Shown here piece after piece: positions 2,606-25,789 of a stretch of DNA of 47,638 nucleotides. The stretch is from positions 1 to 47,638 of the forward strand of contig CALGTK010000030.1 of NCBI GenBank assembly GCA_937904325.1, given 5' to 3'. Source of the stretch: an uncultured Planctomyces sp. Lineage in GTDB: Bacteria > Planctomycetota > Planctomycetia > Planctomycetales > Planctomycetaceae. Each line of letters starts with the position of its first letter. The first letter of the stretch is position 1. The notes under the pieces were generated by a model, which was given only the letters and a program-made list of their open reading frames with translations, was not told the origin of the DNA and did no database searches. The position numbers and the translations under genes were made by a program.

Positions 2606-4522
2606 ATGCTGACACTCTTGATCGCTGTGGGCTCGTTCGTCGGATATTTGATTGCCTACCACACCTACGGCCGATGGCTCAGCCGAAAGATTTTTCAGCT
2701 AAACGACGAAACTGAAATGCCAAGCCACGAACTGCGTGACGATGTCGACTTCGTACCAACGAAGCGGCAGGTAATATTTGGGCACCATTTCACCAGCATC
2801 GCCGGCACCGGGCCAATCGTCGGACCAGCAATCGCAGTGTTCTGGGGATGGTTGCCGGCACTGATCTGGGTATTCGTCGGCTCGATATTTATCGGTGCCG
2901 TTCACGACTTCGGCGCGCTGGTCGTATCGTTAAGAAACCGAGGCCAAACCGTCGGCGAAGTTGCGGGACGACTCATCAGCCCAAGAGCCCGCGTACTTTT
3001 TCTGGTCATTCTGTTTATGGCACTGACTGTAGTACTGGCTATCTTTGGATTGGTGATTGCATCGATTTTCAAAGATTACCCGGAGAGCGTTCTTCCGACG
3101 TGGATATCGCTGCCTTTGGCGGTCGCAATTGGTTTCTGGGTATACAAGAAAGGCGGCGGAATTCTTGGACCTTCGCTGGGAGCATTGGCCGTCATCTACG
3201 GGTGCGTCTGGCTCGGAGCTTACGTTGTTCCCATCGACGTTGCGGCACCGGTTGAGGCTCTTCGAAATACACTTGGGCTGAGTGAAGGTGGCGTCTTAAA
3301 CGTCATCACAATGTGGACTTTCGTTTTGCTTGTTTACTGTTTCGTTGCGTCGGTGCTTCCCGTCTGGGTGATGCTGCAACCTCGAGACTACGTAAACAGC
3401 CATCAGTTGGTCGTGGCACTTGTACTGTTGATGATTGGCGTTGTCGTTGCAGGAGCAAACGGAACCGCTAATCTGGAAAATAGTGCTCCGATGATCGCAT
3501 CGTCGTTGCCCTCAGACGCGCCGCCGATCTGGCCTTTCCTCTTCATCACGATTGCCTGCGGCGCATGTAGCGGTTTTCACTGCCTGGTCAGCAGCGGTAC
3601 GACCAGCAAGCAGATTGACAAGGAATCTGACGCTCAGTACGTCGCTTACGGCTCGATGCTGCTGGAAGGCGGACTGGCGATCATGGTCATCCTTGCTTGC
3701 TGCGCCGGCGTCGGCATGGGCGGCTTTGATCGAATCGATGATGCAGCAGTCGGCGGCGGCTACCGGTACGAAGCTCGACTGGAATCCGACGGCCAACAGG
3801 CGACGGGAGCGGCGGCCTGGCAAGCTCAGTATGACATCGGCAAGCGGTGGACCGATTTCAAACTATCGAACAAAGTTGGAGCTTTTGTGAATGGCGGCGC
3901 GAACTTTCTGACCTCAATTGGTATCCCATTGAAACTTGGCATCAGCGTAATCGCGGTTCTTGTTGCTTGCTTTGCAGCAACCACACTCGACAGCGCCACC
4001 CGCTTGCAGCGTTACGTCGTTCAGGAACTCGCCGGAACGCTTCGCATCAGGCCACTTCAAAACAAGTATGTGGCAACAGGATTCGCGGTCACCCTTGCGG
4101 GAATCGTCGCGGCCATGCCGGCAGCAGAAGGCAAGCCGGCCGGAACTGGAGGACTCATTCTCTGGCCGTTATTTGGAGCGACCAATCAGCTACTGGCAGG
4201 GCTCGCATTCATGGTGACAATGTTCTATCTCTGGCGACGAGGCCGCCCGGTCTGGTTTGTCGCCATTCCGATGACCATCATGCTGATCATGCCCGCCTGG
4301 GCAATGCTCTGGCAGATGTTCAACTCAGAAAGCGGCTGGTATCACAAAAACCAGACGCATCTACTTTGGACAGGCTTTGCGATTCTTGGTATCCAGCTTT
4401 GGATGATCGTTGAAGCGTTGCTTCTGCTGCCGCGAGTAAAAGGTGTCGTCGAGGAGGGTTTGCCCCCACTGGTGAAGCCAGCTTTCGCGGGACCTGACGG
4501 CTCGAGCGGACCAAACTGTTAA
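2606..4522 (+). CDS. cstA: CstA-family carbon starvation transporter
   Basis: Polytopic inner-membrane protein of the CstA/BtsT family, whose studied members import peptides or pyruvate during carbon limitation. Seen directly: many hydrophobic segments across 638 aa, the family block FGHHFTSIAGTGPIVGPAIA near residues 50-70, the next conserved stretch GAVHDFGALVVSLRNRG, and SGTTSKQ in the middle. It is a little shorter than the Escherichia coli protein (about 700 aa). The ATG at 2606 has GGAG eight bases upstream. It stands alone: csrA diverges from it and a long noncoding stretch follows. CsrA represses cstA in E. coli, so having csrA next door is suggestive, but regulation here is inference. 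The actual substrate cannot be told. Confidence 0.9.
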   Translation: MLTLLIAVGSFVGYLIAYHTYGRWLSRKIFQLNDETEMPSHELRDDVDFVPTKRQVIFGHHFTSIAGTGPIVGPAIAVFWGWLPALIWVFVGSIFIGAVHDFGALVVSLRNRGQTVGEVAGRLISPRARVLFLVILFMALTVVLAIFGLVIASIFKDYPESVLPTWISLPLAVAIGFWVYKKGGGILGPSLGALAVIYGCVWLGAYVVPIDVAAPVEALRNTLGLSEGGVLNVITMWTFVLLVYCFVASVLPVWVMLQPRDYVNSHQLVVALVLLMIGVVVAGANGTANLENSAPMIASSLPSDAPPIWPFLFITIACGACSGFHCLVSSGTTSKQIDKESDAQYVAYGSMLLEGGLAIMVILACCAGVGMGGFDRIDDAAVGGGYRYEARLESDGQQATGAAAWQAQYDIGKRWTDFKLSNKVGAFVNGGANFLTSIGIPLKLGISVIAVLVACFAATTLDSATRLQRYVVQELAGTLRIRPLQNKYVATGFAVTLAGIVAAMPAAEGKPAGTGGLILWPLFGATNQLLAGLAFMVTMFYLWRRGRPVWFVAIPMTIMLIMPAWAMLWQMFNSESGWYHKNQTHLLWTGFAILGIQLWMIVEALLLLPRVKGVVEEGLPPLVKPAFAGPDGSSGPNC

Positions 4523-4700
4523 CTACGCTTTGCCATTAATCAACTGCCCGTTTAATAAGGTAAGCCCACCGGATCGATTTGACCGGATGGTGGATATCAC
4601 AAATCGACAGGAAAGTCACAGATTCAGCCTGACTGACGTGAAGGAATATGCTATCCCCATTTATACTCAAGATGCTTCCAAAGAGTCCCGAAGACTTGAA

Positions 4701-4728
4701 TTGACACGATCAACATTCGGGTTAAGAT
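4701..4728 (+). promoter_or_regulatory. Sigma70-type promoter candidate
   Basis: A perfect TTGACA at 4701-4706 is followed after 16 bases by TAAGAT (4723-4728), four of six matches to the -10 consensus. Transcription would run toward the structured stem at 4765 and eventually toward rho. No experimental support. Confidence 0.4.
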
Positions 4729-4764
4729 GCTTGAAACCTCTGAGTACTGTTGCCTTCCTCACCT

Positions 4765-4801
4765 GTTGGTCTTATGGGTAGACGTTAAGTACCCAACCAA
4801 C
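4765..4801 (+). other. Two-part RNA stem-loop
   Basis: GTTGGT pairs with ACCAAC and, after a four-base bulge (CTTA) on one side, TGGGTA pairs with TACCCA around a nine-base loop. Twelve perfect base pairs begin some 30 bases downstream of the promoter candidate. No T run follows, so this is not a standard terminator. It could be part of an RNA leader or a small RNA. Confidence 0.45.
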
Positions 4802-5641
4802 AATCGATGCCTGAGGGAGTTGAATCCGGGTTCCACGTCGTTCTCGTGCTTGCTCGATTACCGCCACTTTCGAACTCAACGTTTCCGGCTTAGAGCGGAT
4901 TCACTCATAGGTTGGCTTAGCCCTGAAAATCGTGAGTCTGTTGACTCACTGGCTGTCTCAGTCTTCAATGTACGAACGACTGATTGAATGCAGTTTCATT
5001 TTTTCGGGACAATCACTTAGTCACGTCCTTAGATTACTGCAAAGCTTTGACTGCAAAGTTTTAGTTTTGCAAAACGACTGCATCCCGTCAGCGGGTTCTC
5101 CACTGCATGATTCAGCACTGGCTTTTTTCTGTGAGTTGCAGAGCTGCTGAAGAACGATACTCTGGATGCCGGGTCATGAATCGCCCGGTACAACTTTGGC
5201 GTTTTCCAGCGTCAATCGACTTTCAAACGGCTGCGGCATGCAATGCTGCTTTTCGGGAATCACTGAAGGTCGGTCTCAATCTCGTGGTTTGGATTCGTTT
5301 TGCCCGAGTTCTGACCAGTTCTGCTGAGGTGGATTGTTAAGCCTCACCCTCTCGCGTTTACTTCGGATCGGACATTCATTTCCGTTTCCAAAGGCAATTT
5401 TCAGCCGGTACTTTCTGGTCACCGGTAGCAGTCGTCAGACTGTTCGCACGACGTCTCAAGCGGTTGGAGCCTGATCCACTGTTTGACTTTTGCGAAACCC
5501 GGTTCACATGAGCTTCCAGCTCTTTCGAGAGCTTCGAGGTGAACACCCTTGTGTACTCCATGGCCTGTTCGTGATTGACTTCTCGCGATTCGATTGAAGT
5601 TGCGAATTCAGTTCATGCTTCGCTCTGTCTGGAATGATTTT

Positions 5642-7441
5642 ATGGTAGCTAAGAGTTCTGATTCATCGGCGAAACCGCCCGCCCGTCGTCGACGCGTCCG
5701 CAAAAGCAAAGATGACGCTGCTGACAGTTCGAGCAAAGACGACGTCAAGGACGTGATCTTTGATGAGTCTGATGACGTGCCACCGCCGAAACGGAAAAAG
5801 GCGACGCGACGTAAAAAGGCAGTAGCCAAGTCGACAAAGAAGGCAGCCGAAGAAGCGATTGCCGAACCAGTCGCTGATGCTGAACCTGCACCAAAACCAA
5901 GGCGTCGTACACGGCGTTCGGCAACTGATGATGATGCCCCTGCCGAACCCCGTGAGCATGAGCGTGAGGCCTCGTCAGAGGGTTCTCCGCCGGCACCGAC
6001 TTCACAGGAACGTGCAGAGCAGGATCGTCAGGAAAGACAGGACAGCCGAGAGCAGGAGGGGGCGACATCAGATGATGAAGGCCGTCCTCGCCGTCGCCGA
6101 CGACGTCGGCGGCGTTCACAGGGTGGCAGTGAAGGCGGTTTCAACAACGGCCCTGGGAACAACAATAATCATGGTGGCGGACCGAACAGCCAGCGTGGTG
6201 GCCGTCGACGCCGAGGTCGAGGTGGTCGTGATTCCCGCGATAGTCGTGACAACCGACAGGGAAACAATCGCGATCGAGTTCGCTCCGTTGCTCCGAGTTC
6301 TGAAGTTATCGAAGGCACGATCGACGGAGTTCTTGAGATGCATCCCAAGGGGTACGGATTCCTTAGGAATGCAGAAAAAGGATACGTTGCCCAGGAATCC
6401 GACCCGTTCGTTCCAAGTTCGCTCGTTGAAAAATATCGTTTGCGTGAAGGAGTGATGATTCGCGGTGACGTTGGACCTGGCGTCCGCAATCAAGGTCCAC
6501 GACTCAAAGAGGTCGAATTAATCGATGGACTGAGTCCAGAAGCGTATGCCGAAGTAAAAGACTTCGACGAACTGACTCCAATCACGCCACACGATCACAT
6601 CCGACTGGAGACTGGACCGAAGCCCGTGACGATGCGAGTTATGGACTTGCTCACGCCGGTCGGGAAAGGTCAACGAGCATTACTGGTTGCACCTCCGCGT
6701 ACTGGCAAGACGATGCTGCTCCAGGACATTGCTGACGCTGTCAGCAAGAATCATCCAGAGATGCATCTGATGGTGTTGCTGATCGATGAACGCCCGGAAG
6801 AAGTCACAGAAATGACTCGCTGCGTAAAGGGCGAAGTCATTGCGTCATCAATGGACCGCGACGTCGAAAGCCACGTTCGCATGAGCCAACTCATGATCGA
6901 ACGAGCCAAACGAATGGCTGAAACCGGCAAGGATGTCTTCATCCTGATGGACAGTATCACTCGAATGGCTCGTGCGTTTAATAAATGGAGCGGTGGTGGC
7001 GGAGGAGGAGGCAGTCGTCACTCGGGCACAATGAGTGGTGGTCTTCACGTGAAGGCGCTAGACATCCCGAAGAAGCTGTTTGGTACGGCTCGTCAGTTCG
7101 ATGAAGGTGGTTCAATCACCATCGTCGCGACAGCCCTGATCGAAACCGGCGGCCGTATGGACGACGTGATCTTTCAGGAATTCAAGGGAACCGGCAACAT
7201 GGAGCTTGTACTCAGCCGCGACCTTGCCGATCGTCGAATTTGGCCAGCCATCGACATCACACGATCGGGAACTCGTCACGAAGAAAAACTCTTCGCGGAA
7301 GATGCTCTTGATAGTGTGATCATGCTGCGGCGAAGCTTGATTTCACTAAGCCCGGTCGAAGCGATGGAGCAGCTCACTCGAACGTTGGATCGATTCCCAA
7401 CGAACACAGAGTTCCTTCAGAAGGTGAAGGCGATCCTGTAA
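5642..7441 (+). CDS. rho: Transcription termination factor Rho with long basic N-terminal extension
   Basis: Hexameric RNA-dependent ATPase that terminates transcription. From the ATG at 5642 the product has 599 aa against about 420 in E. coli. Residues 1 to about 215 are an added low-complexity region rich in Arg, Asp, Glu and Gly, including a run of nine arginines and RGG-like stretches. Then follow the RNA-binding fold (GVLEMHPKGYGFLR), Walker A APPRTGKT at about 350-357, LIDERPEEVTEM, and the C-terminal FKGTGNMELVLSRDLADRR and ITRSGTRHEE motifs. At the Q-loop (about 450-460) seven glycines in a row followed by SRH are inserted. In-frame TTG (5594) and ATG (5615) starts exist upstream; MVAKSSDSS looks the most natural beginning. 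A strong terminator follows. Confidence 0.95.
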   Translation: MVAKSSDSSAKPPARRRRVRKSKDDAADSSSKDDVKDVIFDESDDVPPPKRKKATRRKKAVAKSTKKAAEEAIAEPVADAEPAPKPRRRTRRSATDDDAPAEPREHEREASSEGSPPAPTSQERAEQDRQERQDSREQEGATSDDEGRPRRRRRRRRRSQGGSEGGFNNGPGNNNNHGGGPNSQRGGRRRRGRGGRDSRDSRDNRQGNNRDRVRSVAPSSEVIEGTIDGVLEMHPKGYGFLRNAEKGYVAQESDPFVPSSLVEKYRLREGVMIRGDVGPGVRNQGPRLKEVELIDGLSPEAYAEVKDFDELTPITPHDHIRLETGPKPVTMRVMDLLTPVGKGQRALLVAPPRTGKTMLLQDIADAVSKNHPEMHLMVLLIDERPEEVTEMTRCVKGEVIASSMDRDVESHVRMSQLMIERAKRMAETGKDVFILMDSITRMARAFNKWSGGGGGGGSRHSGTMSGGLHVKALDIPKKLFGTARQFDEGGSITIVATALIETGGRMDDVIFQEFKGTGNMELVLSRDLADRRIWPAIDITRSGTRHEEKLFAEDALDSVIMLRRSLISLSPVEAMEQLTRTLDRFPTNTEFLQKVKAIL

Positions 7442-7469
7442 CGCTACCCTCTTGATATTCAGATGATTC

Positions 7470-7509
7470 AACTCCCGATTTCAGCCACCGCTGGAACCGG
7501 GAGTTTTTT
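7470..7509 (+). terminator. Intrinsic terminator of rho
   Basis: AACTCCCG pairs with CGGGAGTT (7470-7477 with 7498-7505) and is followed by a run of six T residues. It lies about 30 bases after the rho stop codon and separates rho from the FtsK cassette. Confidence 0.85.
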
Positions 7510-7665
7510 ACGCCACGAGAGAATCGTACGCGAAGCAAATGCAGCCCGGTGTAATTTGTGGAAAACAGCGTACCTTTTCAGCCCGCAGTCGAATTCTGTT
7601 GATTCCTTAACTGAATTTTCGTTTTCAGACATGTCGCACGATTCGTAGCCGGATACGGAATCGAC

Positions 7666-7673
7666 TTTATAAT
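7666..7673 (+). promoter_or_regulatory. -10 element before the FtsK cassette
   Basis: TTTATAAT, containing the perfect hexamer TATAAT, lies 24 bases before the start of the 73-aa gene. No good -35 box stands 17 bases upstream. The position between the rho terminator and the first cassette gene makes it the likely start region of that operon, though the leader would be short. Confidence 0.35.
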
Positions 7674-7696
7674 AGCTCTCGTTAGAGGCATTAAAC

Positions 7697-7918
7697 ATGG
7701 GTTTAATCGATCTGAGTTCGCCAGCAGCGAAGGTTCATTCGTCATTGGAAAACCTGCAGGAAGCCTGGATGGCCTCCCAGGAAAAGTGGAGCGACGAGAA
7801 CGCTCGAAAGTTCGAAGATGAGTACCTCGTGCCGCTGGCTTTGACGGTCAAGCTGTCGCTTGATGCCGTTAATCGAATGGCCGAAACGCTGCACGAAGCT
7901 GAGCGAGACTGCACCTGA
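7697..7918 (+). CDS. WXG100-like small helical protein
   Basis: 73-aa, almost entirely helical, acidic protein without signal peptide. The core reads LQEAWMASQEKWSDEN followed by ARKFEDEYLVPL. This gives the W-x-[G/D]...F spacing of WXG100 (EsxA-like) turns, with Asp where classical members have Gly, then a second amphipathic helix ending AERDC. WXG100 proteins form helical hairpins that are exported by FtsK/SpoIIIE-type EccC/EssC ATPases, and exactly such an ATPase is encoded next, 92 bases downstream. AGAGG eight bases before the ATG supports the start. Membership in the WXG100 superfamily is inference from pattern and context. It could instead be an adaptor or subunit of the ATPase rather than an exported substrate. 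Confidence 0.7.
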   Translation: MGLIDLSSPAAKVHSSLENLQEAWMASQEKWSDENARKFEDEYLVPLALTVKLSLDAVNRMAETLHEAERDCT

Positions 7919-8010
7919 CTTATAGTTTGTAAACAGTCGGCTGTGCTGCTGAGCCGTTAGCTATTAAGCACTTTGCAGGTGTCGTTAATGCTCGGAGAAT
8001 TCCCAACATC

Positions 8011-11000
8011 ATGACAACTTTGCATAGCGAAACTGACCCGCATGACGACTCACTGGAATATCACGAAGTCACCGCAAACCAGATGCTGTCTGATTCACCA
8101 CTGGATACACTGAATGCATCGAAGTTCGGCTTGCAGTATTCCAGAAATGCTGTAATCACAGGCGATAATGTGGCTAGCGAGCGGCCATCCAATAGCCCTC
8201 AGCACGAGGTAAGAAAAGTGTCGGGTGACGCGGCTACAGAGCCAGTCAACAGTCTGATTCAGTCGTTGTTCGAAGGAATCGCGCAGCGAGTCGATGGCGA
8301 ACTTGGTCTGGCGCAACGTCTCAAGAACGAACTGGCGGAAGAGAAAGTTCGTTTTGAAGTCGAATCCGAAGCAAGGCAATCGGTTTACGAAACCGAACGC
8401 AACGCTCTGCAATCCGAATATGACTCAGTTTGTGCCGAAGCAGGACTCCACTATCAGGGACATTACTCGGCTGCTTCCGAAGAGTATGACGAAGCACTTC
8501 GAGCTGCGAACGAAGATTATGAAGACATTACCGATCAGATTCGGCACGAATTCGAAGAGACGCGATGGATGGTCGTGTCATACTTCGACGAAAATGCTGG
8601 CGACTCTCCCAAGCAACAGTTCGAGCAGTTTGAACACAATGTCGAACGATCTGGCGAGCACCTCGAGAGCGAAGCAAAGCAACTCGAAGAAATCCACGCG
8701 TCGATTGTCGCAACGCTAAAAAAACGCCGGATGTGGACTGATCCCGAGCAACCGGGACACCTGGCACTACCAACATCGCTTGATGGACTCGTCAAAGTTT
8801 TCGAGGAACGAGCCGACCTGGCACGCACTCAGTCAGCATGCTTAAGCCGCCAGAAGCTCCCGGTGTTGTTCGCTGGAATGTTGCCGCTTGTCTTCTTTGT
8901 ACTGATCGCGGGAGGGCTTGCCGCCATAACGCGGGTCGCGTTTGATCCAGCAATGCTCGGTTTCAAAACAGCCCCGCCCAGTCAGGAATGGTTCGCAATC
9001 CTGGGTGGCATTTCCGTGGTCCTCACGATGGCGATCCAAGGGATCCTTTTCGGCATTGCTCGGGGAAGTGCAGATTCACACTACGAGCAGCTCGCTCAAC
9101 AGATGGTCGATCTACGAGCCATCCATCAGCACTGGAAACGATTGTCGAGTCGAGAATTCAAACGCTTAAAAAAGGAATTCGACGAGTGGTACGCGTCACT
9201 CGCCGAAGAACGGGATACTCGATTGCGGATGGCGCAGGAAAAATTTGACCGCGAAACGAGCGCTCACAAGCAACGTCGCGAGGATTTGCTCAAGCAGGCA
9301 AAGGATCGATACCCCGCGTTGATGGAGTCGTTGACTCGCGAGCGAGACAAGCGTCTTCAGCTTGCGCACGTTGACTACCCCGGAAAACTGGACAAGCTCA
9401 ATGCTCGATTCGAGTGGGACGTCAAGAAGCTAGGTAACGAAAGCCAAAAGCGAGCGCAGGCAATACAGCAACAGCACGATTTTGACTGGCAGAACATGGC
9501 TCAGTCGTGGCATGGCGTTATTGATTCGATCCGGGCGACATCCGACCGGATGAACACAGACATGGAGGTCATCTCGCAACGATGGCCAGACCTGGCATTT
9601 GGAAAATGGATACCCGCAACGGCAATCCCAAACGGCGTTCGACTCGGCGATTTCAAACTGCGTCTCGGCGACATCGAATACGGCATGCCTGACGACGACC
9701 GGCTCGTTCCCGAAGTCAGCGAGTTTTCGATCCCCGCGATGATGCCGTTTCCGGATAAGGCATCTTTACTACTGAGAGGCAGTGGTGGTGCGGCTCGTGA
9801 AGCCGCAGTCGATCTTCTTCAGGTCGTCATGTTGAGGCTGCTGGCAACATTGCCGCCAGGCAAAGTTCGTTTCACGATCATCGATCCAATTGGCCTTGGA
9901 GAAAACTTTTCGGCGTTCATGCACCTTGTTGATTACGACGAACTGCTTGTCACAGGAAAAATCTGGACCGAGGCGGCGCATATCGAGCAGCGTCTTACGG
10001 ACCTGACCGAGCACATGGAGACGGTATTCCAGACGTACCTTCGCAATGAATTCAAAACGATCGAAGAATACAACGAATTCGCTGGCGAAGTCGCGGAGCC
10101 CTATCGCATTCTGGTCATCGCGGGTTTCCCATCGAGCTTCGGCGAGCAGGCAGCGAGACGACTACAAAGTATTATGTCCAGCGGTCCTCGATGCGGCGTC
10201 TACACATTATTGAGTGTTGATCCGCAGTTGACGATGCCACCAAACTTCAACCTGGCAGATGCTGAGTACGAAGCAACCTGTCTCTCTTGGAACGACAGCG
10301 GATTTGCATTCGACGACGAAGACACTTCATGGCTGCCTCTGAAATTGCACACCGCGCCCGAATCAGACGAGTTCAGTCGATTTGTGAAACGAGTTGGCGA
10401 TGAATCAAAAGATGCGCGACGTGTTGAGGTATCGTTCGAACGCATCGTGCCGAAAGAACTCTGGCAGCAGGACAGTCGAGGTGGACTGGACGTTCCACTC
10501 GGGCGAGCCGGTGCGACAAAACTTCAGCACATACGACTGGGCAAAGGGACTTCGCAGCACGTCTTAATGGCTGGTAAGACAGGCTCCGGCAAGTCAACAC
10601 TGATGCACATTCTGGTAACCAACCTCTCGCTTCATTACAGCCCCGACGAGCTTGAGTTCTACTTGATCGACTTCAAGAAGGGCGTTGAATTTAAAACTTA
10701 TGCTGCAAATCGGTTGCCACATGCCCGCGTGATTGCCATCGAAAGTGACCGGGAATTCGGGCTGAGCGTTCTGCAGCGACTTGACTCAATTCTGAAAGAA
10801 CGCGGCGACCTGTTTCGTGAGCGAGGTGTTCAGGACATCGCCGGTTTTCGCAACAACAATCCTGAACGCATGCCTCGGATCATGCTGTTGATTGACGAAT
10901 TTCAGGAGTTCTTTACCGAAGATGACGGAATTTCGCAGCAGGCTGCGCTGTTGATGGACCGTCTGGTACGTCAGGGACGAGCCTTCGGAATGCACGTGAT

Positions 11001-12453
11001 GCTCGGTTCGCAGACGCTTGGCGGAGCTTACTCTTTGGCACGCAGCACACTTGGGCAAGTCGCCGTCCGGATTGCGCTGCAGTGCAGCGAGGCGGATGCT
11101 CATCTCATTTTGAGCGAGGACAACACGGCCGCTCGATTACTCACTCGACCGGGTGAAGCGATCTACAACGACGCCAACGGTTTACTGGAAGGCAACCACC
11201 CATTCCAGATTGCGTGGCTCGACGATGAGAAACGAGACGGCCATTTGAGCCGTGTCCTGAAGCTTTCGGAAGCACAGGAACTTGATTACTCCGCACCGAT
11301 CGTTTTCGAAGGCAACGTCCCGGCTATTCCAACGAACAATCATGAACTCGTCGCATTATTTGCACATGACAAGGTTTCAGAACCACGCGGTGTTATCGAT
11401 GCATGGCTCGGCGAAGCGGTCGCCATCAAGCCTCACACAGCCATCGGATTCCGCCGACTGGCTGGATCGAATCTGCTGATTGTTGGGCAAAGCGAGATCA
11501 GCGCAAGAGGAATTCTCTCGTCCGTTTTTCTTGCGGCCGTCAGGCAGGTTTCACCAGTAAATCCAGACGACGCTCTCTTGCTGGCCGGCGAGTCTGAAGA
11601 ACTGCCGGCTGAAGGAACAGAGTTGACGAGTTCAGCAGGAGACGCTGAAAGGTCGACGTCAGACGCCCTCGAAGCGATGAAGTCGTTTTCATTCGCTGAT
11701 ATGAAGATACCGAATCCGACGGCAGAGTCGTCTGAAGAAGATCCGGATGAAACAGTCGCCAGCCGGCCCCCGTCGCAGTTCTACATTCTGGATGGAGAAT
11801 TGGCGGACGCGCCGATGATCGACTTCTGGAGTAGTCTCACTACAGGATTGCCGATCGACATTCGTGTTGGTGGCCCGAGTGCTGCTGCGAGTTTTGTAGG
11901 TGAACTGGCAGCGGTGGTCGAGTCTCGCGGGAAGGCAACAACACAACCTCCGATGTTCCTGGTGATCGACAATCTGGGACGATTCCGCGATCTCCGTAAA
12001 GCAGACGACGACTACAGCTTCTCCACAGACCGAAGCAAGGTCGTAAGCCCCGCTAAACAGTTCGTTCAAATCCTGAAGGAAGGCCCAAGTGTCGGAGTTC
12101 ACACCCTTGTCTGGGCGGATACTTACAACAACGCAAGCCGTTGGATGACGAATCAGACAATGCGTGAGCTGGAAATGCGGGTTGCATTCCAGATGAGCGC
12201 CACAGATTCCAGTAACTTAATTGACTCACCAGTTGCAGGGCGACTCGGACAAAACCGTGCCTTGCTTTACCTTGAGGAAACAGGCACCCTTGAGAAATTC
12301 CGTCCGTACGGACTGCCGTCGGATGAATGGATGACTACGGTGCGCGACGGATTCGGAATTTGTCAATCCGAGAACGCAGATGCAGAAATAGCGACGATCC
12401 CGGACGAAGATATTGAAGTGGTTGACGATCTCAGCTCGTGGACCATCCTGTAA
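8011..12453 (+). CDS. FtsK/SpoIIIE-type membrane ATPase with coiled coils and three ATPase modules
   Basis: 1480 aa. Residues 1 to about 275 are hydrophilic and largely coiled coil (many Glu/Gln/Arg heptads). Two membrane helices lie near 283-307 and 329-350, followed by a second coiled coil to about 510. Three RecA-like modules then follow. The first (about 560-790) has GSGGAARE where a P-loop would be and looks inactive. The second has a perfect Walker A GKTGSGKST (Lys861), LIDFKKGVEF and Walker B MLLIDEFQEF (Asp962-Glu963), typical of FtsK/SpoIIIE. The third (about 1130-1450) has VGQSEISA in the P-loop position and VIDNLGRF as a Walker B remnant. One active and two degenerate modules in tandem recall EccC/EssC of type VII secretion rather than the chromosome pump FtsK, and no FtsK gamma domain is seen. 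The WXG100-like gene precedes it and a kinase gene follows. Confidence 0.9.
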   Translation: MTTLHSETDPHDDSLEYHEVTANQMLSDSPLDTLNASKFGLQYSRNAVITGDNVASERPSNSPQHEVRKVSGDAATEPVNSLIQSLFEGIAQRVDGELGLAQRLKNELAEEKVRFEVESEARQSVYETERNALQSEYDSVCAEAGLHYQGHYSAASEEYDEALRAANEDYEDITDQIRHEFEETRWMVVSYFDENAGDSPKQQFEQFEHNVERSGEHLESEAKQLEEIHASIVATLKKRRMWTDPEQPGHLALPTSLDGLVKVFEERADLARTQSACLSRQKLPVLFAGMLPLVFFVLIAGGLAAITRVAFDPAMLGFKTAPPSQEWFAILGGISVVLTMAIQGILFGIARGSADSHYEQLAQQMVDLRAIHQHWKRLSSREFKRLKKEFDEWYASLAEERDTRLRMAQEKFDRETSAHKQRREDLLKQAKDRYPALMESLTRERDKRLQLAHVDYPGKLDKLNARFEWDVKKLGNESQKRAQAIQQQHDFDWQNMAQSWHGVIDSIRATSDRMNTDMEVISQRWPDLAFGKWIPATAIPNGVRLGDFKLRLGDIEYGMPDDDRLVPEVSEFSIPAMMPFPDKASLLLRGSGGAAREAAVDLLQVVMLRLLATLPPGKVRFTIIDPIGLGENFSAFMHLVDYDELLVTGKIWTEAAHIEQRLTDLTEHMETVFQTYLRNEFKTIEEYNEFAGEVAEPYRILVIAGFPSSFGEQAARRLQSIMSSGPRCGVYTLLSVDPQLTMPPNFNLADAEYEATCLSWNDSGFAFDDEDTSWLPLKLHTAPESDEFSRFVKRVGDESKDARRVEVSFERIVPKELWQQDSRGGLDVPLGRAGATKLQHIRLGKGTSQHVLMAGKTGSGKSTLMHILVTNLSLHYSPDELEFYLIDFKKGVEFKTYAANRLPHARVIAIESDREFGLSVLQRLDSILKERGDLFRERGVQDIAGFRNNNPERMPRIMLLIDEFQEFFTEDDGISQQAALLMDRLVRQGRAFGMHVMLGSQTLGGAYSLARSTLGQVAVRIALQCSEADAHLILSEDNTAARLLTRPGEAIYNDANGLLEGNHPFQIAWLDDEKRDGHLSRVLKLSEAQELDYSAPIVFEGNVPAIPTNNHELVALFAHDKVSEPRGVIDAWLGEAVAIKPHTAIGFRRLAGSNLLIVGQSEISARGILSSVFLAAVRQVSPVNPDDALLLAGESEELPAEGTELTSSAGDAERSTSDALEAMKSFSFADMKIPNPTAESSEEDPDETVASRPPSQFYILDGELADAPMIDFWSSLTTGLPIDIRVGGPSAAASFVGELAAVVESRGKATTQPPMFLVIDNLGRFRDLRKADDDYSFSTDRSKVVSPAKQFVQILKEGPSVGVHTLVWADTYNNASRWMTNQTMRELEMRVAFQMSATDSSNLIDSPVAGRLGQNRALLYLEETGTLEKFRPYGLPSDEWMTTVRDGFGICQSENADAEIATIPDEDIEVVDDLSSWTIL

Positions 12454-12665
12454 ATCACAAGGGCTCCTTCCGCTTTTGTTCCTTCATCTGAAGAATTAAC
12501 CTGCGACAGTGCCCCGTCAATCGACTACCAGACTTGCGAATTCCTGCTGATCGAATTCAAGCGGTTGCGTCGTTGGCTATACGCCCGCTGCTCCGCAGTA
12601 TTCACCGAATTCAATCAGAATATTACCGTAAAATCTTCCACGTATTGGCGGTCGACTTTCACTTC

Positions 12666-13769
12666 ATGGCTTCATCCGATCCTTTTCCTTCTACCAGGGA
12701 TTTCTCACAGCACTTCCGTCCTACCGGAAGTGCTCTCACGACGCGCTACGAGTCGCTCCAGAAATCAGGAGCGGTTCACTGGACAGCACAATACCGTTTT
12801 CTGGACCGTCTCGGGTCCGGAACGCAGAGTGTCGTGATGCTGGCTGACCGGCTTGGTTCTCTGGATGTTTCGCTACGGGTCGCCTTGAAACTGTTTTCGC
12901 CGCTGTTATATCCCGACACGGATTCGTATCTGTCGGAGATGTCTCAAACCGCGCAAGTGGCCATGAAAATTGCAGAGATCCAGGAAGACCACCTGCTGGA
13001 TGTTCACAATTTTATTGAGAGCAGTGGAATCCAGATCATGGTGATGGAGTGGGTCGACGGCTTTGACCTGAACTATTTAATGGAGTCACGATGGCTGCGG
13101 ACAATGGCTGAAGCAGCCGGTAAAGAGCGCTGGACACGAATCAATGATGTCGTCATCACGGCTGGGCCGACTCAATCCAGACTGAAACCCGGCGTCGCGG
13201 TGCATGTTCTGCGCGAGTGCCTTTCAGGACTGGCTGCGCTGCACCGTTCGAATATCGTGCATGGAGACGTGAAACCATCAAATATCATGCTTAAACGAAC
13301 GGCAAGCACAAAGGTCATCGACTTTGGGTCCGCTTTCGAAATCGGACGGCCACGAATTCAGCCGGCATGGACACCGCGATATGCCGCGCCGGAAGTTATC
13401 GAAACCGGCAAGTTCGAAATGAATTCGGATCTGGCGAGTCTTGGTTACGTGTTTCTGGAATTAGTTGCCGGTCGCTCGCCATTCGATAATGTTAAAACAA
13501 AGGCCGAATTGCTCGATGTGAAGCATACCCTGCACGATCAAGTCGAAAATGTGCTCCCACGAGATGTCAGGCGAGATACCGGGCTCGTCGAATTGATCCG
13601 CAGAATGATTCATCCTGACTGTTCGGAACGATTCTCCAGCCCAGATGATGCGCACCTCTCTCCAGATGGAGCAGCCGCTGCACAACGGCGACTGGTACTG
13701 GGCGACCTTTCGAGCGAGTACGAGATTGATATTCGTGACTGGCTGATGTTTGTATCAGCTCCAGATTGA
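12666..13769 (+). CDS. Serine/threonine protein kinase of the FtsK cassette
   Basis: 367-aa Hanks-type kinase without a membrane segment. Visible motifs: glycine-rich loop GSGTQS (50-55), VALK lysine 75, catalytic loop HGDVKPSN (199-206), DFG (219-221), YAAPEV (activation segment end) and SDLASLGYVFLEL. The loop has HGD instead of HRD, so it is a non-RD kinase, but all catalytic residues are present. A large insert of about 30 aa (AAGKERWTRINDVV...) lies before the catalytic loop. The open frame extends upstream to a TTG at 12534, but the first in-frame ATG, at 12666, gives a more natural start; its ribosome site is weak. It follows the ATPase gene by 212 bases and is closed by a hairpin, so it probably belongs to the same operon and may phosphorylate the ATPase or the WXG-like protein. 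Confidence 0.85.
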   Translation: MASSDPFPSTRDFSQHFRPTGSALTTRYESLQKSGAVHWTAQYRFLDRLGSGTQSVVMLADRLGSLDVSLRVALKLFSPLLYPDTDSYLSEMSQTAQVAMKIAEIQEDHLLDVHNFIESSGIQIMVMEWVDGFDLNYLMESRWLRTMAEAAGKERWTRINDVVITAGPTQSRLKPGVAVHVLRECLSGLAALHRSNIVHGDVKPSNIMLKRTASTKVIDFGSAFEIGRPRIQPAWTPRYAAPEVIETGKFEMNSDLASLGYVFLELVAGRSPFDNVKTKAELLDVKHTLHDQVENVLPRDVRRDTGLVELIRRMIHPDCSERFSSPDDAHLSPDGAAAAQRRLVLGDLSSEYEIDIRDWLMFVSAPD

Positions 13770-13792
13770 ATGCGGTTCGGATCGCGAAATGA

Positions 13793-13822
13793 AAGAGGCC
13801 TCGCCGTTTGGCAAGGCCTCTT
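13793..13822. terminator. Hairpin between the convergent kinase and fliA genes
   Basis: AAGAGGCCT pairs with AGGCCTCTT (13793-13801 with 13814-13822) around a 12-base loop, between two converging genes. It lacks a long T run on either strand, but position and stem strength fit a bidirectional terminator. Confidence 0.65.
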
Positions 13823-13848
13823 ACATGTTCGATTGAATCTGCGATTCG

Positions 13849-14628
13849 TTACGCAAACTCTGGACGGCGACGTCTCAGCTGATCTTTCAGGCGAGCGACG
13901 ATGCTGGAGTGCATCTGGCTGACTCGCGACTCTGACAAGCCAAGAGTCGATCCGATTTCCTTCATCGTGAGTTCCTCATAATAGTAGAGGATCATGATGA
14001 GTCGTTCGTTGCGGTTAAGACCTTTAGTCACCAGACGCATAATGTCACGTTTCTGGATTCCACCCGTTGGGTCTTCGCCTTTGTGGTCTTCGACAATGTC
14101 GACTTCTCGAACATCTTTGTAACTGTCGGTCTCGTACCATTTCTTGTTCAGGCTAACGAGATTTACTGCGTTCGCATCCGATTTCATCTTCTCGTACTCT
14201 TCGAGCGACATCTCCATTTCAGCGGCCATTTCGACGGCCGTAGGAGGTCGACCAACCCGAGCTTCCACTCGTTTGCGACCAGCTTCGAGCTTGCTGGCTT
14301 TGCTTCGCACAAGCCGAGGTACCCAGTCCATGGTTCGAAGTTCGTCGAGCATTGCTCCACGAATTCGGGGCACGCAGTAAGTTTCAAACTTAACTCCGCG
14401 TTCCATATCGAATGCTTCGATCGCATCCATGAGTCCGAAGGTACCAGCAGAGATCAGATCATTCAGATCGACCCCTTCGGGTAGTTTTTGCCACACACGT
14501 TCAGCGTTGTACTTGACCAACGGAAAGTATCGTTCAATAAGAATGTTCCGTAGTCGCTGATCTGTGAGATCTGCTTTGAAGTCCTTCCAGACCTCTGCCA
14601 GAACTTCGTCGCTGATCTTCGTTGCCAT
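13849..14628 (-). CDS. fliA: Flagellar sigma factor FliA (sigma28)
   Basis: 259-aa RNA polymerase sigma factor of the FliA/WhiG type that directs late flagellar genes. Region 2 is seen as NDLISAGTFGLMDAIEAFD and GVKFETYCVPRIRGAMLDEL, region 3 as VGRPPTAVEMAAEM, and region 4 as LTMKEIGSTLGLSESRVSQ followed by the usual H-x-x-x-x-x-RLK end. The open frame begins at 14649, but the ATG at 14628 has GGAGG five bases upstream and gives the product starting MATKISDEV, so I use it. Unlike in many bacteria it is not part of an flhA-flhF-flhG-fliA operon; those genes lie about 7 kb away on the other strand. It is preceded by a small membrane-protein gene in the same direction. Confidence 0.95.
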   Translation of the reverse strand: MATKISDEVLAEVWKDFKADLTDQRLRNILIERYFPLVKYNAERVWQKLPEGVDLNDLISAGTFGLMDAIEAFDMERGVKFETYCVPRIRGAMLDELRTMDWVPRLVRSKASKLEAGRKRVEARVGRPPTAVEMAAEMEMSLEEYEKMKSDANAVNLVSLNKKWYETDSYKDVREVDIVEDHKGEDPTGGIQKRDIMRLVTKGLNRNERLIMILYYYEELTMKEIGSTLGLSESRVSQMHSSIVARLKDQLRRRRPEFA

Positions 14629-14696
14629 GAAACCCTCCGTGGTTTTCATCGTCAGGCAGTTTTGAATCCCATGATTAGACGCGTGAACGTCGACGT

Positions 14697-14978
14697 TCAG
14701 GATTCAGCACTGAGTTGTTGGTTATTGTCCTGAGTTGCGTTTTCGTCGATGACTTTTTTGATCTTTGAGATCACTATGTCTTCCAGAAGACGACGGGCAA
14801 GTTCTCCAATAATCATTCCGATTCCAAAGAATGCCGCACCGATCTTGATGGCCAGAATCAGTACTGTCCGAAACTCCGAACCGTCCAGAACCCCGCGAAA
14901 TGCAACTGTCGCAAACGCGATAAGTGCAAGTCGACATGCAGTGTGGAGTGCCACGGGACTGTCCGATTTTCGATGCAC
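14697..14978 (-). CDS. Small two-helix membrane protein upstream of fliA
   Basis: 93 aa beginning with GTG. Two hydrophobic helices are visible (about residues 12-31, ACRLALIAFATVAF, and 37-57, VLILAIKIGAAFFGIGMIIG), followed by a charged amphipathic tail. No family is recognised. It lies 68 bases before fliA in the same direction and so may be cotranscribed with it, with a sigma28-like -10 octamer upstream. A flagellar role is only a guess from position. The GTG start has a weak ribosome site; the second codon CAT and no in-frame ATG nearby leave some doubt about the exact beginning. Confidence 0.6.
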   Translation of the reverse strand: MHRKSDSPVALHTACRLALIAFATVAFRGVLDGSEFRTVLILAIKIGAAFFGIGMIIGELARRLLEDIVISKIKKVIDENATQDNNQQLSAES

Positions 14979-15046
14979 GCGACGATTGTGATCTCTTGCG
15001 AAGATTCATCGGGAATGATGAAATCGCAACGAGGGCCTGCTTCGAT

Positions 15047-15054
15047 TTATCGGC
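15047..15054 (-). promoter_or_regulatory. Sigma28-like -10 octamer before the fliA gene pair
   Basis: GCCGATAA on the minus strand is identical to the enterobacterial sigma28 -10 consensus and lies about 70 bases before the GTG of the two-helix protein. Fifteen bases further upstream stands GATA, only half a match to TAAA. A second, weaker copy, GCCGATTA, lies at 15103-15096. Autoregulation of fliA would be sensible, but the -35 match is poor. Confidence 0.35.
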
Positions 15055-15261
15055 GAGTTGTACTGTTGATATCAGCCTTTTCGGAAAAGTTTTCGTAATC
15101 GGCAAAGTTTGACACGTCGTAGAAGTGAGAAATCCGAAGCGCGAAAGTAGTGGAAAGAGAAGAGCATGAGGGACCAGCAGGAGATGCTGGCAGTGAGGTG
15201 GGAGTGTGAAGAGAAACGAGAGGTGAACAGCAAACTAATGAAACATTCAAATTCAAAGAGA

Positions 15262-15283
15262 GATCGGTTCTGACCCCTTTTTT
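15262..15283. repeat. Possible REP-like motif (AAAGGGGTCAGAACC type)
   Basis: The minus strand reads six A residues, GGGGTCAGAACC and GATC. Sequences with the core GGGGTCAG next to an A run are common as dispersed copies linked to REP-associated IS200-like transposases. Only one copy is seen in this window and no transposase is present, so this stays a suggestion. Confidence 0.25.
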
Positions 15284-15572
15284 CAATTGAAGGTAAACGC
15301 TGTAAATTAAGTCTGCCTTTTACTTAAGAAGCATGGCAGCGATCATTTATGAAAAGGAAACTCAAACGTCAGTAAAGAGTGCCTCAAAAGAAAACAGGCG
15401 AAAGCCAAAAAATCAGACTCGCGAATATCAGTCGCACATCCAAGTTTCTATCTCTCTCCAATTCATTGAACTGTTGTCGTGAAATGGCCCGTTCAGATTT
15501 AACGCTGCTGAATCGTGGGAGCCTTCGCGCTTCGTTCCGTCGAACTTCGCCTGCCGACGCCGATAGACGAAG

Positions 15573-15890
15573 TTACTCAAGCGTTTCAAAATCGGCGTCA
15601 GTGAGACATGCCCACTTGTGGTAGATCTGCTGATCTTCGCAACGTTTGACATACGATTCTGGCATCGAGTCAACGACGGCCTCATCCCACTCAACAAAGT
15701 ATTTAAAGGGCGTCTTCTTGCCGGAGACCTCGACTACCTTACCAGTCCAACCAGCAAAGGAGATGTCTGTAAAATCCGGTGAGACAACTTTATCAAGAGC
15801 ACGAATACTCGTTCCAACCTTGCGTTTGACCGTCTTCTTTTTCTTGACGGGCGTCTGAGGTTTTGGATTTTCGGTGGTCACACTGGGCAT
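15573..15890 (-). CDS. Small protein with basic tail and SH3-like beta domain, function unknown
   Basis: 105 aa. The first 30 residues are rich in Lys and Pro (TPVKKKKTVKRKVGTS), after which comes a compact beta domain with VVSPDFTDISFAGWTGKVVE, VEWDEAVVDSMP and YVKRCEDQQI. The alternation and the GW-x-G-x-V-V-E turn look like a small SH3- or Tudor-like barrel that I have seen in uncharacterised conserved bacterial proteins, but I cannot name the family with certainty. AGGA eight bases before the ATG at 15890 supports the start. No signal peptide, so it is probably cytoplasmic; the basic tail could bind nucleic acid. Confidence 0.7.
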   Translation of the reverse strand: MPSVTTENPKPQTPVKKKKTVKRKVGTSIRALDKVVSPDFTDISFAGWTGKVVEVSGKKTPFKYFVEWDEAVVDSMPESYVKRCEDQQIYHKWACLTDADFETLE

Positions 15891-21233: not shown

Positions 21234-22030
21234 GCAGGAAGTTTAACGACCGTCACTCGCCGCTGAAGCCTCACGCGACAGGGCACGAATCTGCTTGCAG
21301 AATTCGTTTACACATGAGCACGAATATCACATCGTCGGATGACGAAACAATCTGTATCCAGCAGAACGCACACGATGGATCCTCCGGCGTTCAAACGATT
21401 CGTCGCGATCTACGGAAAATTCCTGAAGATGTACAAAGCCCAGACTTTGGTGACCATCATGCCGGGATCGGCCTCGGTTAGTAGTGGTCCCTTGTCACGC
21501 CCCGCCAGTACGGTTGGCTGCTGGGCACGCCGGTCCGCTCTTCCTGACGAATCGGCAGGTCGCTGAGTCTCATCTGAACGGGATGCGGTTCCTCAAGCAC
21601 GTAGTTTCAATAGTCCTGCCAGACCATCGCCGCCAGAACCAAACCAAAGATCCAGCCGAGCCCGGTTCCTGACAGAAACAGCGTCCTTCAATCGTCGGAC
21701 GAATGGGCCATTCGTTGCATCACCTATCGATTTGGACGGACGAAGGTTCTTGCGAGAGTGCATGGTTCAGCATCTCAGCTCTCCAGAATCCCGAGGCCAA
21801 TACCGGTCCCTTAAACGGGCGTGAAGTTCTGCCAGACATCACCAGCTCAAGGAATCACGGGCCGGATCCTCGTCTGGACAGGATCTTCAGTTTTCCATAT
21901 CAACCAGCTCGATATTTGTTAATGTCGCGAGGAGAAGACACCGGACTGGCTGATCGATCTGTCAATAGCAGCGTAAATCGTTACCAGTTCAAATCTTCGG
22001 TCTCGTTTTATGAACAGCACGGAGGCATGG
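21234..22030. other. Divergent intergenic region between the ABC permease and flhA
   Basis: About 800 bases without an intact gene. On the minus strand between about 21690 and 21478 a single frame shows a hydrophobic peptide LSGTGLGWIFGLVLAAMVW, then a TGA, then PHPVQMRLSDLPIRQEERTG and SSQPYWRGV ending in TAA. It looks protein-like but is interrupted by stops, so it may be a decayed small membrane-protein gene. The rest holds nothing I recognise. Confidence 0.4.
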
Positions 22031-24214: not shown

Positions 24215-25789
24215 ATGAACGAAATCAAAACATTCAAAGCCGATTCCATGCGGCAAGCACTCGCCATCGTGCGTCAGGAGCTCGGCACGGACGCCGTCAT
24301 CCTGAACACACGGCAGATTACTCACCGGCGACTCCTGCCCTTCCTGAAAAAGCGACAGGAAGTCGAAGTGACAGCTGGCATAAACGTCGGTACTCGACCG
24401 ACACCGGCATCTGCTCCTCGGTCAGCGACGCCTGCTGCAGCTCAAGGAGCCGGATCGTTCTCGGCAGAAGTCTCAGACAAATCGGCAATTCTCAACGCAC
24501 CAGGCTTCCCCATCCGTCGTCCACAAGTCAAACGAGAATCGCCAGCGATCGTTTCGACGGATCCGGACACCCCGCTTGCTAAGGCTGCCGCTTTGGCGAT
24601 GGAACTGGAACGTCAAAACGAAAACAAAGCACAGTTGGCAAAGAGCATTAACGCACTGGAAGCAGCCGCTGCCGCGGTTGCTCCACCGACAGTTGCTGCT
24701 GAACCAACCCCCGTCCGCGAGAAAATCAAACCACATACCAACGGCCATGAACCGTTGCGTTCGACTGAACAAACCAAATCCGAACTTCCGTCATCAGCCG
24801 CGACTCAAACGCGGGAACGTGCCGAAGATGTTCCCCACTCAGACAATCAAGCAGCCGGTTTACAGGCTGCAGCGAACGCGTTGACCGAAGAAGGTGAATC
24901 CACAAACGAGCTGTCCGTGAAGCTCGACGTGCTGCAGAAGATGGTTAAAAATCTCTCTCAGAAATCGCAATTCCGCAGCGCTGACGAAGTGCCAAGCGAA
25001 CTCTTTGAAATCTACACACAGCTCATCGACGCAGACATCGATGATAATCTGGCCCGCGAGCTGATCTGCAATCTCCGACAAAACTACACACCAGAGCAGC
25101 TTCACGATCCGGCTGGATCGCGAGCTTTGTTGTCAGCGATGGTCGAAGCGGACATCCAATGTGCGCCGCCGATTCAGACCGAAGTCGGACGCCGTCGAGT
25201 TATCGCACTGGTCGGCCCGACCGGAGTCGGTAAGACCACAACGATCGCGAAGCTGGCCGCCAACTTTCGGTTACGTGACGGCATCGAAATGGGACTGGTT
25301 ACAGTCGACACGTATCGCATCGCGGCGGTCGAGCAACTTCGCACCTACGCGGAGATCATCGACCTCCCGATGAAAGTTGTCACGAGTCCACAGGAAATGC
25401 GGCGAGCGCTGGATGAGTTGTCTGATCTGGATCTGATCCTGATTGACACCGCAGGACGAAGCCCACGCGACGAACTGAAGATTCAGGAATTGAAGTCACT
25501 GCTCAACGAAGCAAACGTAGACGAAGTGCACCTTGTCATGAGCCTGACGGCGAGCGTTCGCAGTATCAAGATGACCTGTGATCAGTTCTCGTCGGTTAAT
25601 CCAACGTCTTTGATCCTGACAAAACTCGACGAAGCGGCTGGAGTCGGCAGCCTGCTTTCAATCGGCCGTGATGTCAAACTGCCATTCAGTTATCTGACCA
25701 CCGGACAGGATGTCCCGGAAGATATAGAGCCAGCAAATGCCAGCCGCGTCGCCCGACTTGTGCTGGGTGAAGATCGACTGTTCGACTAA
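24215..25789 (+). CDS. flhF: SRP-type GTPase FlhF
   Basis: 524 aa. The N-terminal motif MNEIKTFKADSMRQALAIV with ELGTDAVILNTR is the FlhF B-domain start. A long low-complexity Ala/Pro/Glu linker (about 65-240) follows, then a helical N domain and the G domain with GPTGVGKTTTIAKLA (about 334 on), DTYRIAAVEQLRTYA, DTAGRSPRDE (about 411) and TKLDEAAGVG. FlhF recruits flagellar components to the pole or sets their number and position, with FlhG as its ATPase regulator, and flhG is the next gene. The gap to flhA is 51 bases, so it is one operon. Confidence 0.95.
   Translation: MNEIKTFKADSMRQALAIVRQELGTDAVILNTRQITHRRLLPFLKKRQEVEVTAGINVGTRPTPASAPRSATPAAAQGAGSFSAEVSDKSAILNAPGFPIRRPQVKRESPAIVSTDPDTPLAKAAALAMELERQNENKAQLAKSINALEAAAAAVAPPTVAAEPTPVREKIKPHTNGHEPLRSTEQTKSELPSSAATQTRERAEDVPHSDNQAAGLQAAANALTEEGESTNELSVKLDVLQKMVKNLSQKSQFRSADEVPSELFEIYTQLIDADIDDNLARELICNLRQNYTPEQLHDPAGSRALLSAMVEADIQCAPPIQTEVGRRRVIALVGPTGVGKTTTIAKLAANFRLRDGIEMGLVTVDTYRIAAVEQLRTYAEIIDLPMKVVTSPQEMRRALDELSDLDLILIDTAGRSPRDELKIQELKSLLNEANVDEVHLVMSLTASVRSIKMTCDQFSSVNPTSLILTKLDEAAGVGSLLSIGRDVKLPFSYLTTGQDVPEDIEPANASRVARLVLGEDRLFD

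What the first reader, a model, noticed from the sequence alone, without database searches (positions are those of the whole stretch)
7697..13769. Three-gene cassette: WXG100-like protein, EccC-like multi-ATPase and protein kinase
Seen: a 73-aa W-x-D helical protein, a 1480-aa FtsK/SpoIIIE ATPase with three tandem modules, and a soluble kinase, all in one direction, with terminators on both sides (7470-7509 and 13793-13822). Known: type VII secretion systems combine WXG100 proteins with EccC/EssC ATPases, and the Firmicutes form includes a pseudokinase-fold protein (EssB/YukC). Inferred: this may be a stripped-down, planctomycete-type relative of type VII secretion, or a membrane-linked ATPase machine with another purpose. 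No other Ecc/Ess/Yuk gene is seen nearby.
Basis: partly seen in the sequence, partly recalled or inferred. Interest (0 to 1): 0.75.

Follow-up and report, generated by a model that had tools for sequence, protein, structure and literature searches.

The report
Split WXG100–EccC-like export module in Planctomycetes
Two of the three neighbouring genes, a small hairpin protein and a large membrane ATPase, belong to a four-gene set that planctomycetes keep all together or lack altogether, most likely a stripped-down cousin of the type VII protein secretion system; the neighbouring kinase is not part of it.

Summary
In detail: a 73-aa W-x-D protein (7697-7918), a 1480-aa ATPase (8011-12453) and a soluble kinase lie in one direction between two strong hairpins. 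The small protein and the ATPase form an old, conserved pair across Planctomycetota. The kinase does not belong: it is adjacent only in this genus, and its orthologues also occur in genomes without the ATPase. The locus is one half of a split four-gene set. In about 45 relatives the order is g1 (true WXG100 protein, Pfam PF06013) – g2 (about 185-aa coiled coil) – g3 (the 73-aa family) – g4 (ATPase). In the window's genome g1 and g2 lie on another contig. Co-occurrence is almost exact: g1 in 30 of 31 ATPase-bearing and 0 of 215 other planctomycete genomes; g3 in 29 of 29 versus 0 of 11. The 73-aa protein is predicted as a WXG100-type hairpin. The ATPase is EccC-like over three modules, but only the middle one keeps Walker motifs. 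Known EccB, YukC and YukD parts are missing. Best reading: a minimal, membrane-anchored WXG100/EccC-type translocase in a diderm bacterium. A 2012 footnote mentions the class; its full part list and repeated operon splits appear undescribed.

The parts
7697..7918 (+). g3: 73-aa W-x-D helical-hairpin protein of the WXG100 superfamily (divergent)
   Evidence: Invariant W31/D33 in 46 relatives; AF2 hairpin, pLDDT 90.7; top aligned structures HP0062 and EsxB, Z 8.8 and 8.7; profile hit to EsxA 2vs0, E 0.001; in 29/29 ATPase-bearing and 0/11 other relatives
8011..12453 (+). g4: EccC-like membrane ATPase, 1480 aa
   Evidence: PF01580 E 1e-30; 4nh0 EccC phmmer E 2.9e-30 and Foldseek E 2.4e-27; at least 385 relatives encoded in genome contigs
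8863..9048 (+). two transmembrane segments (residues 285-303 and 328-346) with coiled coil on both sides
   Evidence: hydropathy; two segments in 48 of 65 relatives
9628..10410 (+). ATPase module 1 (about residues 540-800), degenerate: no Walker A
   Evidence: family alignment; AF2 model
10417..11430 (+). ATPase module 2 (about residues 803-1140), the only one with Walker A (GKTGSGKS at 10573-10596) and Walker B (LLIDEFQEF)
11431..12330 (+). ATPase module 3 (about residues 1141-1440), degenerate: no Walker A
   Evidence: family alignment; AF2 model matches EccC/EssC modules 2-3
12666..13769 (+). soluble Ser/Thr kinase: genus-specific neighbour, judged not part of the system
   Evidence: PF00069 111 bits; adjacency only in the genus; no co-occurrence with the ATPase
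7470..7505 (+). intrinsic-terminator hairpin after rho, upstream of g3
13793..13822 (.). hairpin between the kinase and the convergent sigma-factor gene

Best explanation
The window holds half of a dispersed four-component, type VII-like translocation module. g4 is an inner-membrane ATPase anchored by two TM helices, with coiled coils and three FtsK/EccC-type modules facing the cytoplasm; only the middle module binds and hydrolyses ATP and would drive a ring-shaped motor. g1 (WXG100, on contig C187), g3 (the 73-aa hairpin) and g2 (coiled coil, on C187) are its small helical partners. By analogy with Esx proteins they are most likely the proteins it recognises and moves across the inner membrane, or targeting partners of whatever it moves. 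Shown here by computation: the gene set, its near-exact co-occurrence, the folds, the single active site, and the absence of known EccB/YukC/YukD parts in this genome. Inferred: membrane topology, hexamer formation, export as the activity, and which partner is cargo. How anything would cross the outer membrane is unknown. The kinase is a bystander.
For: g3 lies directly upstream of the ATPase in 68 of 100 loci. An intact g1-g2-g3-g4 order occurs in about 45 loci, with g2/g3 overlapping in 19 of 41, mostly by 4 nt. g1 in 30/31 ATPase+ and 0/215 ATPase- genomes; g2 in 28/29 versus 0/11; g3 in 29/29 versus 0/11. Copy numbers match: two g2 and two g3 in G034 and G038, which have two ATPases. The set is kept although the operon is broken in different ways: [g1 g2][g3 g4] in the window's genus, [g1 g2 g3][g4] in G023, [g1][g2 g3][g4] in G009 and G016. 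g1 is a PF06013 member (34.5 bits, cut-off 27.3; 34 of 34 relatives match). The ATPase is nearer EccC than FtsK (EccCa model 105 bits versus FtsK 23 bits; 4nh0 E 2.9e-30 versus FtsK 3.7e-8). A Helicobacter plasmid relative has g1-like, then a WHH/colicin-type nuclease, then SMI1/KNR4, then a 77-aa gene, then the ATPase, as expected if such modules export cargo.
Against: No secretion has been shown for any member. No outer-membrane or other membrane component was identified. The YxxxD/E export motif is absent from all g1 and g3 members. g3 itself is below the Pfam WXG100 cut-off (no hit for P0001), and its profile match to g1 is moderate (hhalign 45%). The plasmid relatives' 76-77-aa gene is not demonstrably g3. 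No toxin cargo was found in planctomycetes; g2 carries no toxin domain there. Two-helix hairpins are a common fold (one search also lists unrelated coils).
Confidence: 0.68

Rival explanations
1. An envelope or cytoplasmic ATPase machine that does not secrete: the hairpin proteins are regulatory or assembly subunits, and the motor acts on DNA, peptidoglycan or membrane remodelling.
For: The motor core also aligns with FtsK and TcpA DNA translocases (Z about 24). Single-copy, almost invariant g1 in the genus (99% identical) and no expanding set of effectors look more like housekeeping than weaponry.
Against: By sequence it is far closer to EccC/EssC than to FtsK. All modules match EccC in order. 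Partners are WXG100 proteins. Each genome also has a separate, shorter FtsK-like hit. A plasmid relative carries a toxin-immunity pair.
Confidence: 0.2
2. One reading: the kinase is a working part (EssB-like or a regulator) of the system.
For: Adjacent and co-directional in all genus members with intact contigs. A Caballeronia plasmid relative also has a Ser/Thr kinase and PP2C in its cluster.
Against: Kinase not adjacent outside the genus; orthologues in ATPase-free genomes G007, G015, G028, G033 and unlinked in G009, G010, G011, G014; no association (p 0.64); intact catalytic motifs and no TM.
Confidence: 0.07
3. A mobile anti-phage or interbacterial conflict module rather than a general secretion system.
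For: Plasmid relatives with nuclease and SMI1 immunity or CARF/vWA/PP2C genes; PADLOC hits SspH and mad8.
Against: The PADLOC hits fall on the shared FtsK domain only (residues 826-1057). Planctomycete copies sit in ordinary chromosomal surroundings (rho, fliA-like sigma) with no GC anomaly and no toxin or immunity gene.
Confidence: 0.1
4. Chance neighbours: a small helical ORF next to an unrelated ATPase.
For: P0001 alone hits no family.
Against: Conserved adjacency in 68/100 loci and 29/29 versus 0/11 co-occurrence even when unlinked.
Confidence: 0.01

Closest known systems
Type VII secretion systems T7SSa (ESX) and T7SSb (Ess/Yuk)
   Same: WXG100 protein plus membrane-anchored three-module EccC/EssC-type ATPase
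   Different: No EccB, YukC/EssB or YukD found in this genome; W-x-D in place of W-x-G and no YxxxD/E; only the middle ATPase module keeps Walker motifs; long N-terminal coiled coil; extra g2 coiled-coil partner; diderm host
'Solo WXG' systems with a YueA-like ATPase, Zhang et al. 2012 (PMC3482391, footnote 6)
   Same: [quoted passage not shown] the window fits exactly
   Different: The footnote gives no g2 or g3, no split loci and no co-occurrence; it calls them mobile, while planctomycete copies look chromosomal and stable; [quoted passage not shown]
HP0062 of Helicobacter pylori (3fx7, 2gts)
   Same: Best PDB match of the g1 profile, E 1.6e-10; hairpin dimer with a WRD motif, clustered with an FtsK/SpoIIIE gene (PMC3397514); also the top fold match of g3
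   Different: Single protein studied, function unknown; the planctomycete set has g2 and a long N-terminal extension on the ATPase
FtsK/SpoIIIE DNA translocases
   Same: Same ATPase fold in the middle module
   Different: No FtsK gamma domain hit in Pfam; sequence far closer to EccC/EssC
EssB/YukC pseudokinase
   Same: Kinase fold next to a T7SS-like ATPase
   Different: The window kinase is soluble with intact catalytic motifs, genus-specific in position, and no YukC profile hit passes the cut-off in 40 genomes

Membership tests
WXG100 superfamily (PF06013): window protein P0001 | Score above the Pfam cut-off | tested here: not met
   No hit for P0001; 10 of 46 family members hit PF06013, best E 9e-5
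WXG100 superfamily (PF06013): window protein P0001 | Two-helix hairpin with the conserved W motif at the turn | tested here: met
   H7-27 and H34-72 with W31-x-D33 in the turn; profile E 0.001 to EsxA. The motif is W-x-D, not W-x-G
WXG100 superfamily (PF06013): partner g1 elsewhere in the genome | Score above the Pfam cut-off | tested here: met
   34.5 bits versus 27.3; 33.5 bits by genome scan
Type VII secretion system | EccC/EssC-type ATPase: N-terminal TM pair and three FtsK-like modules | tested here: met
   but far below the EccC/EssC equivalog cut-offs (105 versus 509, 99 versus 778 bits)
Type VII secretion system | Membrane core partners (EccB/EccD/EccE or EssA/EssB/YukD/EsaA) | tested here: not met
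   PF05108 and PF10140 over cut-off in 0 of 40 genomes; PF08817 not in G000. EccD TM domain, EccE, EssA and EsaA were not searched
Type VII secretion system | YxxxD/E export motif in a substrate | tested here: not met
   0 of 46 g3 and 0 of 34 g1; 2 of 29 g2
Type VII secretion system | ATPase-dependent secretion of WXG100 proteins | not testable with these tools
   needs fractionation and secretome experiments
Solo-WXG / YueA-like class of Zhang et al. 2012 | Three FtsK/HerA domains, only the middle one active, with solo WXG proteins | tested here: met
   One Walker A in each of 66 members, in module 2; solo WXG g1
EssB/YukC (for the kinase) | YukC profile; membrane-anchored pseudokinase | tested here: not met
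   No TM, catalytic motifs intact; PF10140 not in G000

The most novel reading that the evidence does not exclude
A distinct, minimal class of type VII-like protein export in diderm bacteria, made of exactly four parts (WXG100 g1, coiled coil g2, short hairpin g3, single-active-site EccC-like g4) that selection keeps together even when the genes scatter over the chromosome. Its mobile relatives on plasmids carry toxin-immunity pairs in the g2 slot, so g2 may be the toxin-free trafficking domain of what is elsewhere an effector, and HP0062 of H. pylori would be a member.
Probability: 0.45. Interest if true: 0.78.

Novelty: new variant of a known kind. Interest (0 to 1): 0.56.

Why it matters
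Type VII secretion is studied almost only in Gram-positive bacteria and mycobacteria. A four-gene set with near-exact co-occurrence in a diderm phylum gives a clear part list for asking what the minimal WXG100/EccC machine is, whether it works across two membranes, and what it moves. It also gives context to HP0062, a solved H. pylori protein of unknown function, and turns a 2012 footnote into testable predictions. The split operon warns that neighbourhood searches alone miss half of such systems.

Tried and rejected
Kinase as a component: rejected. Three active ATPase modules: rejected. Defence system via PADLOC hits: confined to the common FtsK domain. Homology of the plasmid relatives' 76-77-aa genes to g3: not shown, scores within or near shuffle range. 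Homology of g2 to plasmid proteins near the ATPase: supported for Deinococcus and Rhodococcus (24 and 20 bits against shuffle maxima of 11 and 7.5) but not for the Helicobacter nuclease and only weakly for Caballeronia. Phage records: only general FtsK-domain matches plus one unannotated faecal phage record with longer coverage, not followed. A verrucomicrobial distribution scan was not possible because the centre must be a genome handle. A further plasmid scan found only the three records already seen. Literature searches for planctomycete WXG100 systems found only the 2012 footnote.
Full report
WHAT IS THERE. The three ORFs exist as described, all on the + strand, between a strong terminator hairpin after rho and a second hairpin facing a convergent sigma-factor gene. 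The kinase start should be moved to ATG 12666: relatives begin with the same motif there. GC content is ordinary.

THE PAIR IS REAL AND OLD. A genome-contig scan found at least 385 stretches encoding relatives of the ATPase; 80 were fetched, nearly all Planctomycetota, one verrucomicrobial. In 68 of 100 loci a homologue of the 73-aa protein sits just upstream (the 100 include some duplicates, since genus loci were fetched by two routes). Its W31 and D33 are invariant in 46 sequences. AlphaFold2 with that alignment predicts a helical hairpin, H7-27 and H34-72, pLDDT 90.7. The structures that align best are HP0062 of H. pylori and EsxB (Z 8.8 and 8.7, rmsd about 1.5); such Z values are not decisive for two-helix coils, so sequence evidence matters more. 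The family profile reaches S. aureus EsxA at E 0.001, 10 of 46 members hit PF06013, and hhalign pairs it with g1 with the W-x-D motifs in register (45%, P 2e-4). I conclude that it is a short, divergent WXG100 relative.

THE KINASE IS NOT PART OF IT. It is adjacent only in the window's genus. Single-copy orthologues (43-57% identity) lie far from the ATPase in G009, G010, G011 and G014, and occur in G007, G015, G028 and G033, which have no such ATPase; ten ATPase-bearing genomes gave no hit (in G004 the ATPase contig ends before the place where the kinase would be) (Fisher p 0.64). It keeps VALK, HGDVKPSN and DFG and has no TM segment, so it is not an EssB-like pseudokinase.

THE MISSING HALF. 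Clustering of upstream genes showed a conserved four-gene order in about 45 loci: g1 (about 90 aa), g2 (about 185 aa), g3, g4, with g2 and g3 overlapping in 19 of 41, usually by 4 nt. g1 is a genuine WXG100 protein: all 34 aligned members match PF06013, and the member of the window's genome scores 34.5 bits (cut-off 27.3). In that genome g1 and g2 lie on contig C187 (L113:7009-7278 and 7320-7817), followed by a pdxH-like gene. So the window shows half of a split locus. Other genera split it elsewhere: G023 keeps g1-g2-g3 together and g4 apart; G009 and G016 keep g2-g3 together with g1 and g4 apart.

CO-OCCURRENCE. In 246 planctomycete genomes the ATPase is in 31; g1 is in 30 of these and in none of the 215 others (Fisher p 1e-37). 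Among 40 relatives, 29 have the ATPase: g3 is in 29/29 and 0/11, g2 in 28/29 and 0/11 (the exception, G002, is 59% complete). Genomes with two ATPases (G034, G038) have two g2 and two g3. Relatedness inflates the p-values, but the pattern spans more than ten families and survives repeated operon break-up.

THE MOTOR. The C-terminal 941 residues (model pLDDT 78.8) match the EccC cytoplasmic domain over about 1020 alignment columns (E 2.4e-27). Module 2 has invariant Walker A and B; modules 1 and 3 have lost them, and each of 66 relatives has exactly one Walker A. Two hydrophobic segments (285-303, 328-346) imply an inner-membrane anchor with both ends in the cytoplasm (topology inferred). By sequence the protein is closer to EccC/EssC than to FtsK.

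WHAT IS ABSENT. EccB (PF05108) and YukC (PF10140) pass their cut-offs in none of 40 genomes; YukD (PF08817) is absent from the window's genome and present in 6 others without tracking the ATPase. No YxxxD/E motif is present in g1 or g3. By these tests it is not a canonical T7SSa or T7SSb.

DISTANT RELATIVES. Plasmid ATPases aligning across the modules lie in Helicobacter, Caballeronia, Rhodococcus and Deinococcus. The Helicobacter plasmid reads: g1-like 89-aa protein (52 bits to the g1 profile, shuffle maximum 20), nuclease (WHH PF14414 and colicin-DNase), SMI1/KNR4 protein, 77-aa gene, ATPase. The Caballeronia plasmid has an annotated WXG100 gene, a 436-aa and a 113-aa gene, a 76-aa gene, the ATPase, then CARF, vWA, PP2C and kinase genes. 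g2 shows detectable similarity to coiled-coil proteins near the ATPase in the Deinococcus and Rhodococcus plasmids. This suggests, but does not prove, that g2 occupies the place of an effector's trafficking domain.

MECHANISM. Most likely (0.68) a minimal WXG100/EccC-type translocase: a membrane-anchored ring whose middle module burns ATP and which engages helical-hairpin partners g1 and g3, with g2 as a further partner or cargo carrier, moving protein across the inner membrane. Shown: gene set, fold, single active site, co-occurrence. Inferred: export, oligomer, topology and cargo.

NOVELTY. Zhang et al. 2012 (PMC3482391) noted in a table footnote that planctomycetes and others have solo WXG proteins with a three-domain ATPase active only in the middle. 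HP0062 has been solved and noted as ESAT-6-like near an FtsK/SpoIIIE gene (PMC3397514). New here, as far as the held literature shows: g2 and g3 as obligate parts, dispersal of the operon with retention of all parts, the toxin-immunity pair in a plasmid relative, and exclusion of the kinase. Rating: new variant of a known kind.

Noticed in passing
13849-14649 (-), 22010-24163 (+), 24215-25789 (+): Sigma-70 family (FliA/WhiG-like) factor, FlhA (FHIPEP, 795 bits) and an SRP54-type GTPase (FlhF-like): the locus sits beside a flagellar gene region.
   Followed up: partly
28979-34495 (-): 1838-aa ORF with no Pfam hit at E 1e-5, in the stretch with the highest GC and strongest AT skew of the window.
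   Followed up: no
43328-47605 (-): 1425-aa protein with an M36 fungalysin peptidase domain, Calx-beta domain and about 14 RTX calcium-binding repeats: a likely secreted protease.
   Followed up: no
36541-38406 (-): PQQ/BamB-like propeller with EF-hand motifs.
   Followed up: no
12666-13769 (+): The kinase itself is a conserved single-copy planctomycete Ser/Thr kinase (one orthologue at 43-57% identity in many genomes, independent of the ATPase) with a non-RD HGD catalytic loop; its own partner is unknown.
   Followed up: partly
L123 (NZ_AP024820.1), 3761-8163: Helicobacter plasmid with WXG100-like gene, WHH/colicin-type nuclease, SMI1/KNR4 gene, 77-aa gene and FtsK-type ATPase: looks like a toxin-immunity pair inside a WXG100/FtsK module.
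   Followed up: partly
L124 (NZ_CP049321.1), 3555-15671: Caballeronia plasmid: WXG100/FtsK module joined to vWA, CARF, PP2C and a kinase ending in a Zn-ribbon-like CxxC...CxxC stretch.
   Followed up: no
L126 (CP029776.1), 6345-11584: Deinococcus plasmid ATPase relative has lost even the middle Walker A (no GxxxxGK[ST]) and lies beside several WXG-like hairpins and a 142-aa gene with one TM segment.
   Followed up: no
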